From positions 1 through 6,465 of the forward strand of contig JACDFX010000106.1 in the NCBI GenBank assembly GCA_013815575.1: 6,465 nucleotides of DNA, written 5' to 3'. A program made the translations under genes and the position numbers. Each line of letters begins with the position of its first letter. Positions within the stretch are counted from its first letter, which is position 1. This DNA is from Rubrobacter sp. (GTDB lineage: Bacteria > Actinomycetota > Rubrobacteria > Rubrobacterales > Rubrobacteraceae). Below the pieces are notes generated by a model that worked only from the letters and a program-made list of their open reading frames with translations, ran no database searches and was not told the DNA's origin. Shown here one piece after another: positions 1,775-6,465 of this stretch.

Positions 1775-3616
1775 CTAAGAAACGTCGAGGGGTTGGGGTT
1801 CGTTCGGGCTTCGGGCGGTTTCGGTCATGGGCAGGAGGACGGAGAAGGTGCTGCCCGCTTCGGGTTGGCTCTCTACCCTGATCCTGCCGCCGAGGTGGTC
1901 TGTGATCTCGTGGGCGAGGGCCAGACCGAGGCCCGTGCCGTCGGCCCGGGAGGAGCCTTGGACGCGGTAGAAGCGGTCGAAGATGTGCGGGATCTCGCCC
2001 TCCGGGATGCCGCACCCGCGGTCGGCGACGCTGATTACGGCGTGCCCGTTCTCTCTGGAGAGCTCTAGGTCCACGGGGGACCCGTCTTCGGAGTACTTGA
2101 TAGCGTTGTCCACGAGGATCGTGAGCGCCCGGTGGAGCTGGTTCGGGTCCGCCTCGACGGGTGGGACGTTCTCTTCGGTTCTGATGTTGATCGGACGGCC
2201 CGTAAAGCCGAAGTCGCGGCGCAGCGAGTGGAGGAGGTCTTCGAGGTCGACCTCCTCGGAGCGGAAGACAGTGGCGTTTGCGTCAAGCCGCGAGAGGTCC
2301 AGCAGCGTCTGGGCGAGGCCTTTGAGACGTTCGGTCTGGGCCCGCATATCGTTCAAGAACTCTGCCCGAAGCTCCGGGTCCTCCACGTCCTCCATCATCT
2401 CGAGCCAACCCGAGAGGGCGAAGATCGGGGTCTTGAGCTCGTGCGAGGCGTTGGCGATAAAGTCGGCCTTGGCACGCTGCACCCGACGCTCCGCGGTAAC
2501 GTCCCGCAGGATGGCGAGGGCGCCGTCCTCGAGGGGGGCGGCCCGCACCTCGATGACGCGGTCCCCGGCCTCTGCTTCGGGTTCGGTGACCGGGCCGGAG
2601 TAGCGGGTCTTGGCGAGAACCTCCTGCAGGCGGACGTGGAACTCGTGCGGGGTTGATTCGAGCAGCTCTTTGGCGCGGGGGTTTCGGAAGACGAGCTCTA
2701 GGTCCCTATTCACGCCGACGACCGCGTCCGTCATGCCGTCGAGGATAGCGTTGCCGCGCTCCTTTTCCTGCTCGATCTGCCCGAAGGCGTCCTTCATGGA
2801 GGCGGCCATTGCGTTGAACGAGGAGGCCAGAGAGCCGAGCTCGTCCCCAACGTGGGTGTTTATGCGCTCGTCGAAGTTGCCGGCGGCCAGGCTCTCTGCG
2901 GCGACGTTCAGGCGGTCCACCCGGCGCGAGATCAAGACTGCCGCGAAGTACCCCGCGAAGCCCGCGATAAGAAGCGCCAGGCCACCGGCGAGCAGGGCCA
3001 GTCCTTCTATCCTGTTCAACACCTTCTCGGCATTCTCGATGTCGCCCTCGGTGTAGAACCTGTTGAAGACTATCGCGGTGTTCTCTACCTCGCGCCCCTC
3101 GGCGTCCCTTACGTCCCTGATCGGAACGGCGTATGTGGCCTGCCGCTGGCCCGCGTACGGGCCATTCTGGACCGATACGGTGTTCCACTTCGGTTCCCGC
3201 GCCTCTACGGAATTCTCTACCACCCCATAGAGCAGTTCCAGATCCGTGTCGCCTCGGAGCCTCAAGACGCCGCGTTCCTCGTCCACCCGGACGATCCCCC
3301 ACTGCAGGTTCCTGGTCTCCGCGAAGTCCTCCATGTCTTGGGTGCTCGGGTTGTCGTCACGCCTTATCTGAGCGTCCCACTGCTCGGCGACCTGCCGGAA
3401 CGTCGCGTCGCTCGCCCGGCTCAGGGAGGTCTCCAGGATGGGGCGCACGATACCGTAGGCGGCGACGGCTGAGACGGCGGTGACGAGCACGAAGAGGACG
3501 GTGAGCCAGACGCGGATGCTCAGGCGCGGCCTGAGCCCCTCTATCGCCTCCAGGGAGGGCAGCTTCGGACCCTGGCGCCGGGGCTTGCGGTCCGGTTTCT
3601 TCTTAGCGGAAAACAT
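1775..3616 (-). CDS. Two-component sensor histidine kinase, PhoR/WalK-like
   Basis: This 613-residue membrane kinase should sense an outer or membrane signal and phosphorylate the regulator encoded just upstream. In order: a basic cytoplasmic tail (1-33), TM1 (about 34-57), an outer sensor of about 145 residues (58-204), TM2 (about 205-229), HAMP (226-281), a PAS domain (286-372), and the HisKA/HATPase core. Key motifs are all intact: the H-box with His392 in ASHELKTP, the N-box with Asn504 in LVDNAIKYS, DRGCG at 532-536, IFDRF at 545-549 and GTGLGLA at 560-566. The outer sensor is not recognisable by eye; a Cache-like fold is possible. I start at ATG 3616, whose coding overlaps the regulator's end by 14 bases, implying translational coupling; the frame stays open further upstream, but that part only overlaps regulator coding sequence and reads as Ser/Thr/Ala-rich shadow. 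No clear Shine-Dalgarno sequence precedes the ATG. Confidence 0.95.
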   Translation of the reverse strand: MFSAKKKPDRKPRRQGPKLPSLEAIEGLRPRLSIRVWLTVLFVLVTAVSAVAAYGIVRPILETSLSRASDATFRQVAEQWDAQIRRDDNPSTQDMEDFAETRNLQWGIVRVDEERGVLRLRGDTDLELLYGVVENSVEAREPKWNTVSVQNGPYAGQRQATYAVPIRDVRDAEGREVENTAIVFNRFYTEGDIENAEKVLNRIEGLALLAGGLALLIAGFAGYFAAVLISRRVDRLNVAAESLAAGNFDERINTHVGDELGSLASSFNAMAASMKDAFGQIEQEKERGNAILDGMTDAVVGVNRDLELVFRNPRAKELLESTPHEFHVRLQEVLAKTRYSGPVTEPEAEAGDRVIEVRAAPLEDGALAILRDVTAERRVQRAKADFIANASHELKTPIFALSGWLEMMEDVEDPELRAEFLNDMRAQTERLKGLAQTLLDLSRLDANATVFRSEEVDLEDLLHSLRRDFGFTGRPINIRTEENVPPVEADPNQLHRALTILVDNAIKYSEDGSPVDLELSRENGHAVISVADRGCGIPEGEIPHIFDRFYRVQGSSRADGTGLGLALAHEITDHLGGRIRVESQPEAGSTFSVLLPMTETARSPNEPQPLDVS

Positions 3617-4301
3617 ATCCGACACCACGCGCGGTGTGGATAAACTCGGGGTTGCGGGGGTCGCGTTCGATCTTCTCGCGGAGGTGGCGGATGTGGACGT
3701 CGACGGTCCGCTCGTCGCGGAACTCATCACCCCAGACCCGCCTCAAGAGCGCGCTGCGCGAGAACACCCGGCCGGGGCTAGAGGCGAGGGTCACCAGGAG
3801 CTCGAACTCCGTGTACGTCAGGTCCACCTCTGTGCCGTCCACGGAGACCCGCCGGCTCGGCAGGTTGATGCGCAGCTTGTCGTAGGTGAGCTCGTCCGGA
3901 CGCTGGCCGGCGGGGACGGCCGCGCGGCGCATGATCGCACGTACCCGCGCCACCAACTCCCTGACGGCGAACGGCTTGGTAACGTAGTCGTCGGCGCCGA
4001 GCTCGAGCCCGACGACCCGGTCTATCTCGTCGTCCTTGGCCGTCAGCATGATGACGGGCACCTCGCTCTGGGCCCGGATGCGCCGGATGACCTCCGTGCC
4101 GTCGAGCTTGGGGAGCATGATGTCGAGCACTATGAGGTGCGGCTCGTAGCTCTTGAAGGCCTCCAAAGCGGCCTCGCCATCGCCCGCGACCTGGATCTGG
4201 AACCCCTCCCGCTCCAAGGCGTGCGTGAGCATCTTCTGGAGCGACGGCTCGTCGTCCACCAGTAGTATCTTTCGCGTAACGCCCTGTAAGTCCTGCACCA
4301 T
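3603..4301 (-). CDS. OmpR/PhoB-family response regulator
   Basis: The 232-residue cytoplasmic protein has a full receiver domain (about 11-125) and a C-terminal winged-helix DNA-binding domain (about 135-232). The acidic pocket is D16-D17, the phosphate acceptor is Asp60 in VLDIMLP, and the switch residues are Thr87 (MLTAK) and Lys109 (TKPF). The recognition-helix region (RTVDVHIRHLREKIE) and the end GVGYVFR are typical of the family, as is the length. It should be phosphorylated by the kinase encoded immediately downstream and then regulate promoters; the regulon is unknown. The ATG at 4301 adds about nine residues before the usual TRKILLVDDE start; GAGGT lies 11 bases before it, a rather long spacing. 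No conventional start codon exists closer to the conserved domain except the GTG at codon 2. An extended -10 promoter and a palindrome lie in the 95-base gap upstream. Confidence 0.95.
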   Translation of the reverse strand: MVQDLQGVTRKILLVDDEPSLQKMLTHALEREGFQIQVAGDGEAALEAFKSYEPHLIVLDIMLPKLDGTEVIRRIRAQSEVPVIMLTAKDDEIDRVVGLELGADDYVTKPFAVRELVARVRAIMRRAAVPAGQRPDELTYDKLRINLPSRRVSVDGTEVDLTYTEFELLVTLASSPGRVFSRSALLRRVWGDEFRDERTVDVHIRHLREKIERDPRNPEFIHTARGVGYVFR

Positions 4302-4396: not shown

Positions 4397-6199
4397 TCAA
4401 GCCAGCGGGACCTCGGGCTCCCCGACCGCCTCCACCACCCTCTCCGCCGCCCTCACGAGATCCGCAGCCTCCCCCAGCCGCACCGCCTCCACCACCCCGG
4501 AGCGCCGCCTGAGGTAGGCCGCCACGATCCGCGCCTCGTTTGAACCGTTCTTGCCCGCGGCAGGCAGGCTCTCTTGCCTCTCCATCGCCTCCTGCGCAAA
4601 GGCCGCGAGGCCGGCCCCGTCCCCGGCCTCGAAGCCGCGGTGGCCGACCAGACGCCCCTCCGAGAGCGCGAAGACCTCTATGACGCCGGGTTCGGTGGAG
4701 GGAGCCACGACGGCCTGGGCGCCCTCCCCGCTCACGACCGACCGCGCGAGACGCACCCGCTCTATTCCCGCTATAAGGTCCCGCAGGCGCGCCGCCGCCT
4801 CGAACTCGAGCGCCTGCGCCAGCCGTTTCCGCTCCAGGACCAGGGCGTGGAGGTGCTCCTCGCCGCCCTCGCCCCGCAGGAGCGCCACGATCTCGTCCAC
4901 CACCTCGCGGCGGTACTCCTCCTCGCCCATCCCGGCGCACGGGGCGCAGCGGCCCATCTGGCCGTAGAAGCACGCCTCCCCGTCACCGGGGCAGCGCTTG
5001 AGGGGGAAGATCCTACCCAGGGCCTCCATGCAAGTATCCAGCACCCCGGCACTCCTGTACGGCCCGAGGTGGACCACGCCGTCTTCGGGGGCGCTCTCAG
5101 GCACTCTGACCGGCATCGGGTACGGCTCGTTGGTGTCGAGCTTGATGAACCAAGTCGCCTTGTCGTCGCGGCCGACGGAGTTGTAACGGGGCAGCAGGCG
5201 TTTGATCTCCCTCGCCTCCAGGATGAGCGCGTGCAACTCGCTCTCGGTCTCCTTGACCTGCACCTCCGCGACCTCCTCGACGAGGCGGCCGACCTTGCGC
5301 CGCCCATCCCCCCCGTTGAAGTACGTCCGCACCCTCGCCTTCAAGTCCTTCGCCTTGCCGACGTAGAGCACGCCGCCGTTCTTATCTACGAAGTAGTAGA
5401 CGCCTGGCGTGTTCGGGACGTGCTCGGCGAGGTGCTGTTTCTGCGGCTTGATCCGGCCCTTCCCGCCCCGGATAGTCGCCGCCTCCCCAACGCTCCTCAC
5501 CCCGGCGGAACGCAACAGCTTCAAGAGCCTCTGAAAGACCTCGGTCGTCGCGGAGGCGTCGGCCAGCGCCCTGTGGTTCGGCGCCTGCCTCACCCCGAAA
5601 TGGTTCACGAGCGCGCTCAACCGGTAGCGCCTCAGGCCTGGAACCAGGCAACGGGCGAGCTTCAAGGTATCGAGGACCGGGTTGGTCAGGGGCACCCCGT
5701 CCCTGGCAGCCGCGACGAACGAGCAGTCGAACTGGACGTTGTGGCCGACGACGACGGAGCCCTCGACGAACTCCTCGAAGCGGGGTATCACCTCGGAGAT
5801 GGGCGGTGCGTCGGCGACCATACGGTCGGTTATGCCGGTGAGGCGGACGACGAACGGGTCGATCGGGCGTCCCGGGTTCACGAGCGTGGAGAACTCGTCC
5901 ACCACCTGGCCGCGCACCAGCTTCAGGGCGCCGAACTCGGTGATCCCACCGCCCTTTCCGGCGGCAGCCCCCGTAGTCTCCACGTCGAAGATCACGTACG
6001 GGGCATCCTCTAGCGCGAGCGCCGCCACATCCGCGGTCCTCAACGCTTCATCCTCCCAGGCGAACCGGGGGTCATCCCCGGTTAGCTTCTCGACGAGGGC
6101 CCGGGCGTCCCCGTTGGCGTCCGGCAGGGAGAGGAAGCCGGAGCAGACCTCCTCCGGACCGACCGGCTCGCGGTCTTTTACGAAGCCGTAGAGGCTAAT
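4397..6199 (-). CDS. DEDDh 3'-5' exonuclease fused to UvrC-like GIY-YIG nuclease half
   Basis: Counted from ATT 6199 the protein has 600 residues; from the first conventional start, TTG 6043, it has 548 (subtract 52 below). Residues about 66-230 form a DEDDh exonuclease: D72 and E74 in FDVETTG, D158 in HNVQFD, H209 and D214 in HRALAD. Residues about 260-342 form the UvrC GIY-YIG domain (GVYYF, YVGKAK, R289, E328, N340). A UvrC-type cysteine cluster follows (C403, C410, C418, C421), then a UVR motif (about 449-482) and a tail without the complete RNase H-like or HhH domains of UvrC. This order is that of the actinobacterial Rv2191-like family. Family knowledge suggests single-strand incision plus 3'-5' trimming in DNA repair; the substrate is not known. 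I extend the start because the 52 codons before TTG are strongly coding in character and ATT has a GGAGGT site eight bases before it. TTG also has GGAGG at eight bases. Confidence 0.92.
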   Translation of the reverse strand: MSLYGFVKDREPVGPEEVCSGFLSLPDANGDARALVEKLTGDDPRFAWEDEALRTADVAALALEDAPYVIFDVETTGAAAGKGGGITEFGALKLVRGQVVDEFSTLVNPGRPIDPFVVRLTGITDRMVADAPPISEVIPRFEEFVEGSVVVGHNVQFDCSFVAAARDGVPLTNPVLDTLKLARCLVPGLRRYRLSALVNHFGVRQAPNHRALADASATTEVFQRLLKLLRSAGVRSVGEAATIRGGKGRIKPQKQHLAEHVPNTPGVYYFVDKNGGVLYVGKAKDLKARVRTYFNGGDGRRKVGRLVEEVAEVQVKETESELHALILEAREIKRLLPRYNSVGRDDKATWFIKLDTNEPYPMPVRVPESAPEDGVVHLGPYRSAGVLDTCMEALGRIFPLKRCPGDGEACFYGQMGRCAPCAGMGEEEYRREVVDEIVALLRGEGGEEHLHALVLERKRLAQALEFEAAARLRDLIAGIERVRLARSVVSGEGAQAVVAPSTEPGVIEVFALSEGRLVGHRGFEAGDGAGLAAFAQEAMERQESLPAAGKNGSNEARIVAAYLRRRSGVVEAVRLGEAADLVRAAERVVEAVGEPEVPLA

Positions 6200-6465
6200 G
6201 GACCCGGACCTCCGTCCGGGCGGCCACGGCCGTCTCGGCCTTCGCCGCCGCGGCGATGGTGCGGGCCTGCGCCTCGGTGATGCCGGGTATGGAGGCCAGG
6301 TTCTCGTAGGTGTACTCCTCGTCGAGCAGGCCGCTGGCGAGCACCCTGGCCCGCGTCTTCATCCCCACGCCCGGCATCTTGGTCGTGTGGAAGAGTTTGC
6401 CCCGCTGGATGCGTAAAGCGCCCACCCCGACGAGCCTCTCGCCGTCAATCAGGACGCGCTTTAGC
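6195..6465 (-). CDS. C-terminal fragment of a helix-hairpin-helix protein (5' end outside window)
   Basis: The frame is open from the window edge to TAG at 6195, giving 89 visible residues. A GTG at 6425 could start a 76-residue version, but the 13 codons before it are also GC-ending and in frame, so a longer gene cut by the window edge is more likely. Two helix-hairpin-helix-like motifs are visible: KMPGVGMKTRARVLA (fragment residues about 29-43) and LASIPGITEAQARTIAAA (about 56-73). Together they resemble an (HhH)2 non-specific DNA-binding module such as those of RuvA or the UvrC C-terminus. The preceding residues (VLIDGERLVGVGALRIQRG) do not look like the UvrC RNase H region, so I do not call it UvrC. 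A DNA-binding or repair protein is inferred; the family is not recognised. Its stop overlaps the ATT start of the exonuclease gene by one base, suggesting a shared mRNA. Confidence 0.75.
   Translation of the reverse strand, partial: LKRVLIDGERLVGVGALRIQRGKLFHTTKMPGVGMKTRARVLASGLLDEEYTYENLASIPGITEAQARTIAAAAKAETAVAARTEVRVH
6208..6213 (-). promoter_or_regulatory. Shine-Dalgarno sequence for the ATT start
   Basis: GGAGGT on the - strand lies exactly eight bases before ATT 6199 and inside the last codons of the preceding gene. It is a near-perfect match to the 16S anti-Shine-Dalgarno and is the main support for initiation at or next to 6199, where ATTAG also contains the preceding gene's TAG stop. 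Confidence 0.5.

What the first reader, a model, noticed from the sequence alone, without database searches (positions are those of the whole stretch)
6041..6199. Exonuclease fusion seems to start 52 codons upstream of its TTG, at a rare ATT codon
Between the stop of the HhH gene (6195) and TTG 6043 the frame is open and protein-like (SLYGFVKDREPV ... ALVEKLTGDDPRFAWEDEAL). 45 of these 53 codons end in G or C, like the rest of the gene. No ATG, GTG or TTG occurs in frame. ATT 6199 has GGAGGT eight bases upstream and overlaps the preceding TAG by one base (ATTAG). AUU starts are rare and in infC and pcnB are tied to low or regulated initiation, so the copy number of this nuclease might be held down in the same way. 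Alternatives are initiation at CTG 6127, a ribosomal frameshift from the upstream gene, or a sequence error changing ATG to ATT.
Basis: partly seen in the sequence, partly recalled or inferred. Interest (0 to 1): 0.7.

Follow-up and report, generated by a model that had tools for sequence, protein, structure and literature searches.

The report
Repair nuclease gene starts at AUU
In one Rubrobacter lineage, the gene of a predicted DNA-repair nuclease has lost the GTG codon from which its relatives' copies are predicted to start, and it likely begins instead at a rare ATT codon whose last base is also the first base of the previous gene's stop codon, which would keep production of the enzyme low.

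Summary
In detail: from ATT 6199 to TTG 6043, 45 of 53 codons end in G/C, and no in-frame ATG/GTG/TTG occurs from the preceding in-frame stop to codon 51. Of 39 Rubrobacteraceae genomes searched, 37 have the gene. In 32 of 37 an in-frame GTG lies one to three codons before SLYGF; in 5 of 37, one clade with the window, it is GGG or GCG and the codon before SLYGF is ATT. The tree needs one change. The 52-residue extension is in 37 of 37, is equally constrained in both groups, and is predicted to be a winged-helix domain that a TTG start would break. GGAGG lies 9 nt before ATT in 4 of 5. Base error, CTG 6127 and +1 frameshift are disfavoured; internal starts are less likely, although TTG 6043 has an SD of its own. 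Weak or IF3-regulated initiation is inferred, untested. Conserved non-canonical starts are known (infC, pcnB, sigR, cvfC1, ccpN): a new member, unusual for the shared start/stop base (ATTAG) and the traceable GTG-to-ATT switch.

The parts
6197..6199 (-). ATT, likely start codon of the exonuclease/GIY-YIG gene; its third base is the first base of the upstream TAG
   Evidence: ATT in 5 of 5 clade genomes; among codons 0-51 the only position where all five have the same near-cognate codon
6208..6213 (-). GGAGGT, Shine-Dalgarno-like; GGAGG ends 9 nt before ATT
   Evidence: Sequence; four-base SD motifs in sister genome G006 peak at 6-11 nt; predicted pairing with the anti-SD -10.7 kcal/mol in 4 of 5 clade genomes, -5.9 in G004
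6203..6205 (-). GGG at the site of the relatives' GTG (codon -2)
   Evidence: GTG at this site in 32 of 32 genomes outside the clade; GGG x4 and GCG x1 inside; overlapping HhH codon CGT in 31 of 32 and GGT in 1 of 32 outside, CGG/CGC in 5 of 5 inside
6195..6197 (-). TAG stop of the HhH gene
   Evidence: TAG in 36 of 37, TAA in 1 of 37 at the same register
6195..6465 (-). 3' end of the upstream HhH gene (343 aa in sister genome G006), continuing beyond the window
   Evidence: Pfam HHH_5 and HHH over cut-off on the full sister protein
4397..6199 (-). Exonuclease/GIY-YIG gene read from ATT, 600 aa
   Evidence: NCBIfam NF005906 575.1 bits against cut-off 495
6029..6199 (-). N-terminal extension, residues 1-57, predicted winged-helix domain
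   Evidence: AlphaFold2 H3-10, H15-22, H32-40, E46-49, E52-55, ten-residue pLDDT means 88-95 in the 240-aa model; same elements when predicted alone
6041..6043 (-). TTG, first canonical in-frame start in the window; not conserved, but with GGAGGA 7 nt upstream
   Evidence: TTG at codon 52 in 2 of 5 clade genomes (G000, G003)
6125..6127 (-). CTG proposed as alternative start
   Evidence: CTG in 3 of 5, ATC in 2 of 5 clade genomes; nearest SD 4-mer 20 nt away or none within 20 nt
5534..5995 (-). DEDD exonuclease domain (RNase_T), residues 69-222
   Evidence: Pfam PF00929, E 1.5e-34
5180..5404 (-). GIY-YIG nuclease domain, residues 266-340
   Evidence: Pfam PF01541, 34.1 bits against cut-off 22.6
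4757..4852 (-). UVR (UvrB-binding) motif, residues 450-481
   Evidence: Pfam PF02151, 23.0 bits against cut-off 21.5

Best explanation
Translation of this predicted exonuclease/GIY-YIG nuclease likely begins at ATT 6199-6197, which appears to have replaced, as start codon, the GTG found one to three codons before SLYGF in 32 of 32 relatives outside the window's clade. Shown by sequence: in five related genomes the GTG is gone, ATT stands immediately before SLYGF (SLYRF in G003), and no canonical start is in frame before codon 52. Inferred: a ribosome that finishes the HhH gene, or a 30S subunit caught by GGAGGT, is placed on AUU and starts there with fMet, so the protein keeps its predicted winged-helix N-terminus. 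Because the third base of AUU is the first base of the HhH stop TAG, no NTG start can exist in this exact register without destroying that stop; AUU is a near-cognate that fits. Predicted: initiation is weak, IF3-sensitive and coupled to HhH translation. In relatives the GTG is cramped 3 nt from the SD and may also be weak, so the switch may have exchanged one weak start for another.
For: 37 of 39 family genomes have the gene. GTG in 32 of 32 outside the clade and 0 of 5 inside; ATT in 5 of 5 inside and 0 of 32 outside. One change on the tree, support 99. The HhH codon that overlaps GTG is CGT in 31 of 32 outside (GGT in the other) and CGG/CGC in 5 of 5 inside; CGT is 362 of 5036 (7.2%) CGN codons in the G006 sample, so the base was probably held by the nuclease's start and then released. 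Extension dN/dS median 0.193 inside the clade against 0.203 among four GTG sisters: no relaxation. AlphaFold2 puts helix 1 at residues 3-10, so the fold begins right after the ATT. SD at 9 nt in 4 of 5. Of the 120 listed homologues, 103 begin at the GTG site; of the 28 of these 120 that I placed in the tree, 15 fall in the ATT clade and 15 of 15 have other predicted starts (2 further upstream, 13 downstream), as expected when the true start is not ATG/GTG/TTG. HhH homologues at 86% identity or more, 13 of 13 (query genome included), end in His before the stop, as CAT-TAG or CAC-TAG requires.
Against: No expression data. ATT being unchanged in five genomes is weak by itself: at the rate elsewhere on the tree only about 0.3-0.4 changes are expected at its two free bases (worked out). 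G004 has no GGAG/GAGG/AGGA motif before ATT, only GGGGT. Internal starts have SDs of their own: TTG 6043 has GGAGGA 7 nt upstream, and GTG at codon 68 has an SD motif at 10-11 nt in 3 of 5, so an additional shorter product is possible. Codon 24 is a near-cognate in 5 of 5, though not the same one. P0004 and P0005, in the clade, are predicted to start 10 codons upstream of the Ile, which could be their real start. HhH tails EVHVH (P0128) and EVNVH (P0131) leave open an ATG re-created at codon -2 in some members, although no protein beginning MSISLYGF is among the 120 listed. Four HhH homologues at only 79-82% identity also end in His (P0155, P0204, P0236, P0237).
Confidence: 0.82

Rival explanations
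1. The clade lost the N-terminal domain from its product: translation starts inside the gene at TTG 6043 (codon 52), GTG codon 57 or GTG codon 68, and the upstream codons are a fossil.
For: These are among the first canonical starts in the five genomes. TTG 6043 has GGAGGA 7 nt upstream and GTG 68 an SD motif at 10-11 nt in 3 of 5. Database gene predictions use downstream starts for 13 of the 15 clade proteins.
Against: Extension dN/dS in the clade (median 0.193) is like that of GTG sisters (0.203). TTG 52 is in 2 of 5, GTG 57 in 4 of 5; only GTG 68 is in 5 of 5, and it lies inside the first strand (68-75) of the exonuclease. A start at residue 53 would leave one strand of the predicted winged helix.
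Confidence: 0.09
2. A +1 ribosomal frameshift at the HhH stop (CAT TAG C) yields an HhH-nuclease fusion.
For: The nuclease frame is +1 relative to HhH and the stop register is kept in 37 of 37 (TAG 36, TAA 1); the next base is C in 32 of 37.
Against: The last sense codon varies (CAT, TCC, CCC, CCG, GTC, CTC and others), and CAT to ATT would leave tRNA-His without good re-pairing (recalled pairing rules). 32 of 32 GTG-type genomes have a start of their own and need no shift.
Confidence: 0.03
3. Another near-cognate codon (codon 24, CTG 6127; or AGG at codon -4) is the start.
For: Codon 24 is CTG in 3 of 5 and ATC in 2 of 5; codon -4 is AGG in 4 of 5; codon 37 is AAG or AGG in 5 of 5.
Against: At codon 24 no SD motif lies within 19 nt in any of the five, and a start there would cut off helices 1 and 2 of the predicted domain. 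AGG/AAG do not fit the NTN pattern of known non-canonical starts (recalled). Only ATT is the same codon in 5 of 5.
Confidence: 0.05
4. A base error changed ATG to ATT in the assembly.
For: None found.
Against: The same ATT is in five genomes, the other four at 89-91% identity to the window over 166 residues. Three of them match MAGs of one project by contig, one is a 4.38 Mb contig whose HhH protein is listed as Rubrobacter tropicus. An ATG here would also remove the HhH TAG.
Confidence: 0.01

Closest known systems
infC (IF3) with AUU in E. coli, AUC in Streptomyces, AUA in S. aureus
   Same: Third-position mismatch to AUG; start misannotated in most Streptomyces (PMC5472188 passages; PMC13009471 passages and section 10).
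   Different: infC controls its own discriminating factor; the nuclease cannot. IF3 control not tested here.
sigR of Streptomyces, GTC start repressed by IF3
   Same: Actinobacterial gene with a non-canonical start conserved in 32 of 34 species (GTT in 2) and an extensive RBS; annotated to a wrong canonical start (PMC5472188 passages).
   Different: There the codon was changed and IF3 alleles tested; here the evidence is comparative only. The passages seen mention no base shared with an upstream stop.
cvfC1 (AUU) and ccpN (AUA) of Staphylococcus aureus
   Same: Conserved non-canonical starts with strong SD; about 10% of AUG output in reporters in poor medium (PMC13009471 section 10).
   Different: Found by Ribo-Ret; other functions; no replaced ancestral start is described in that section.
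pcnB of E. coli, AUU
   Same: AUU start limiting synthesis (title seen in a reference list; the paper was not read).
   Different: Different gene and lineage; whether it shares a base with an upstream stop was not checked.
Cho-like+Exo family of Actinobacteria, with the mycobacterial exonuclease-GIY-YIG fusions
   Same: N-terminal exonuclease, GIY-YIG, UvrB-binding motif (PMC1564403 passages).
   Different: Rubrobacteraceae members carry a predicted winged helix of about 57 residues in front and follow an HhH gene; neither is mentioned in the passages seen.

Membership tests
Conserved non-canonical (third-position-mismatch) start codons | No canonical in-frame start that can yield the conserved N-terminus | tested here: met
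   0 of 5 clade genomes have ATG/GTG/TTG from the upstream in-frame stop to codon 51; two database proteins of the clade have one upstream
Conserved non-canonical (third-position-mismatch) start codons | Codon conserved across species at the predicted start | tested here: met
   ATT in 5 of 5 clade genomes; its invariance alone is not telling
Conserved non-canonical (third-position-mismatch) start codons | Shine-Dalgarno at suitable spacing | tested here: met
   GGAGG 9 nt upstream in 4 of 5; only GGGGT in G004; motifs in G006 peak at 6-11 nt
Conserved non-canonical (third-position-mismatch) start codons | Initiation shown at the codon and lower than from AUG | not testable with these tools
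   Needs reporter, profiling or N-terminal proteomics
Conserved non-canonical (third-position-mismatch) start codons | Repression by IF3 | not testable with these tools
   Needs infC alleles or IF3 over-expression
Cho-like+Exo GIY-YIG nucleases | Exonuclease domain N-terminal to GIY-YIG | tested here: met
   RNase_T 69-222 and GIY-YIG 266-340 over cut-off
Cho-like+Exo GIY-YIG nucleases | UvrB-binding motif, no EndoV-HhH part | tested here: met
   UVR 450-481 over cut-off; no EndoV or HhH family among the matches at E 1 or better
Cho-like+Exo GIY-YIG nucleases | NCBI family model of DEDD exonuclease domain-containing proteins | tested here: met
   NF005906 575.1 bits, cut-off 495
Termination-reinitiation (translationally coupled) gene pair | Short conserved gene overlap | tested here: met
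   5 nt overlap if ATT is the start; stop register kept in 37 of 37
Termination-reinitiation (translationally coupled) gene pair | Downstream synthesis depends on upstream translation | not testable with these tools
   Needs a two-reporter assay
Programmed +1 frameshift | Conserved slippery codon before the stop | tested here: not met
   Last sense codon varies over the 37 genomes

The most novel reading that the evidence does not exclude
A start codon locked in a non-canonical state by its neighbour: because AUU shares its third base with the HhH stop (AUUAG), selection cannot turn it into AUG, GUG or UUG in this register, so the nuclease stays under IF3 control. Rubrobacteraceae infC itself is predicted to start at GUA, so nuclease and IF3 would form one IF3-sensed set that couples DNA-repair nuclease dosage to translation-initiation capacity.
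Probability: 0.25. Interest if true: 0.75.

Novelty: new member of a known kind. Interest (0 to 1): 0.55.

Why it matters
Very few non-canonical starts have been characterised by experiment (as PMC5472188 says). Here comparison alone gives a history: a GTG kept in 32 of 32 relatives, its loss in one clade, and ATT in its place, with the N-terminal domain kept. It suggests how a gene can move its start to a non-canonical codon, shows that a start sharing its last base with an upstream stop cannot be NTG, and that gene prediction misplaces such starts (15 of 15 database proteins placed in the clade). It also offers a testable case of translational restraint on a predicted DNA-repair nuclease.

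Tried and rejected

Limits of the counts: one search used the 37 of 39 family genomes with a match (G014 and G025 had none). G001, G026 and G031 give shortened products in the stretches read. Second, weaker matches of several genomes were not used. In G019 and G023 the GTG is at codon -1 and in G024 at -3; these are counted as the same site because it overlaps the same HhH Arg codon. In one search, 28 of the 120 listed proteins were placed (P0004-P0030 and P0052, the last chosen for its short length). In one search, 581 open frames gave 219 after a composition filter and 60 with an unambiguous start; SD counts are motif hits, not genes, and GGAGG itself was hit 8 times (none at 3 nt). infC: 30 loci of 39 genomes were held, 29 readable at the start; two searches were failed first scripts (wrong motif; a crash), repeated. 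dN/dS was computed for codons 1-51 and 52-164 only, by a simple counting method; some sister pairs have dS over 1. After re-checking I lowered the main confidence from 0.85 to 0.82 and raised two rivals, because of the SD at TTG 6043 and the near-cognates at codon 24.

Full report
What is there. The window's minus strand carries the end of an HhH gene (stop TAG 6197-6195) and, overlapping it, a frame from ATT 6199 to the stop at 4397. The 600-residue product has a DEDD exonuclease domain, a GIY-YIG domain and a UVR motif and passes the NCBIfam model NF005906. By PMC1564403 (passages seen) this is the Cho-like+Exo kind of Actinobacteria. The first canonical start is TTG 6043, codon 52 if ATT is codon 0.

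Relatives. A search of 39 Rubrobacteraceae genomes found the gene in 37, and the extension aligns in 37 of 37. In 32 of 37, those outside the window's clade, an in-frame GTG lies one to three codons before SLYGF, typically as GGAGGTCC-GTG. In 5 of 37 (G000, G002, G003, G004, G006) that GTG is GGG (4) or GCG (1), and the codon before SLYGF is ATT. A quick maximum-likelihood tree of 65 rows without the extension's columns separates the five from the 32 with one change, support 99. Of the 120 listed database homologues, 103 begin at the GTG site. I placed 28 of the 120 in the tree: P0006, which begins MSPSLYGF, is sister to the clade, and 15 fall inside it; 15 of 15 have predicted starts elsewhere.

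A second sign that GTG was the start and is no longer. In the HhH frame the GTG overlaps an Arg codon. It is CGT in 31 of 32 GTG-type genomes (GGT, Gly, in the other), although CGT is 362 of 5036 CGN codons in the G006 sample; in the clade it is CGG (4) or CGC (1), still Arg. So the third base was probably held by the nuclease's start and set free when the start moved. The genomes are related, so no probability is given.

Why ATT. Among codons 0-51 the only position with the same near-cognate codon in 5 of 5 is ATT at codon 0. Codon 24 (CTG 6127) is CTG in 3 and ATC in 2, and codon 37 AAG or AGG in 5; codon 24 has no SD motif within 19 nt in any of the five. GGAGG ends 9 nt before ATT in 4 of 5 and 3 nt before the relatives' GTG in the typical setting. 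In 60 G006 genes with an unambiguous start, four-base SD motifs pile up at 6-11 nt (39 hits over six positions; background 1.4 per position), with one hit at 3 nt. Predicted anti-SD pairing is -10.7 kcal/mol in 4 of 5 and -5.9 in G004. ATT is rare: 1 of 18 Ile codons in this gene, 137 of 3418 in the sample.

Mechanism. Shown: the ATT, the lost GTG, the SD and stop register, the constraint on the protein. Inferred: AUU is decoded by initiator tRNA; ribosomes ending HhH translation, or 30S subunits docked at GGAGGT, supply it; output is low and IF3-sensitive. Precedents: in Streptomyces the GTC start of sigR is repressed by IF3 and infC starts at ATC (PMC5472188 passages); in S. aureus cvfC1 uses AUU and ccpN AUA, at about 10% of AUG output in poor medium (PMC13009471 section 10); short overlaps favour termination-reinitiation (PMC10666635 abstract). 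In ATTAG the start's third base is the T of TAG, so an NTG start is impossible there while this TAG stays. The relatives' GTG, so close to the SD, may be weak too; whether low output was kept through the switch is untested.

Results against. ATT's invariance in five genomes says little by itself. G004's SD is weak. TTG 6043 has GGAGGA 7 nt upstream, and GTG codon 68 an SD motif at 10-11 nt in 3 of 5, so shorter products could be made as well or instead. P0004 and P0005 have a predicted start 10 codons upstream, and two HhH tails leave an ATG at codon -2 possible in some members. Four HhH homologues at 79-82% identity end in His although they may lie outside the clade. No measurement exists. 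On re-checking I lowered the main confidence from 0.85 to 0.82.

Verdict. A well-supported non-canonical start, a new member of a known kind with two unusual traits: a switch from GTG that can be placed on one branch, and a base shared by start and stop.

Noticed in passing
L083-L112 (infC loci; window genome L112): infC (IF3) of Rubrobacteraceae lacks ATG/GTG/TTG in the 10 codons before its conserved N-terminus in 29 of 29 readable loci (30 held); in 29 of 29 a GTA is in frame with AGGAG exactly 9 nt upstream, so a GUA start is predicted; one database protein (P0303) has Ile there (MVYIATEEEPRIN). Of 120 listed database proteins 72 show no RIN-like motif in their first 60 residues, mostly for a start further in as far as I looked.
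   Followed up: partly
window 6195-6465 and L079:2689-3720: The upstream gene is a 343-aa protein in G006 with one HhH region over the Pfam cut-off and a C-terminal one just under it in the window (22.7 against 24 bits), weak RuvA similarity, 'hypothetical' in Rubrobacter tropicus; its stop register and similar tail precede the nuclease in 37 of 37 genomes, suggesting a functional pair.
   Followed up: partly
P0128, P0131 (HhH homologues): C-termini EVHVH and EVNVH mean that the codon over the relatives' GTG became CAY/AAY, which would give ATG or ACG in the nuclease frame; a possible return to a canonical start in some relatives.
   Followed up: no
window 6147-6155 (-): GGAGGAGGT, a strong SD-like stretch inside the extension, with no canonical in-frame start at a usual distance after it; chance or a pause site, not examined.
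   Followed up: no
window 1775-3730 and 3603-4301 (-): Frames that look by eye like a sensor kinase and a response regulator overlap by 128 nt if the kinase is read from its first GTG at 3730, so its real start is probably further in (families not searched).
   Followed up: no
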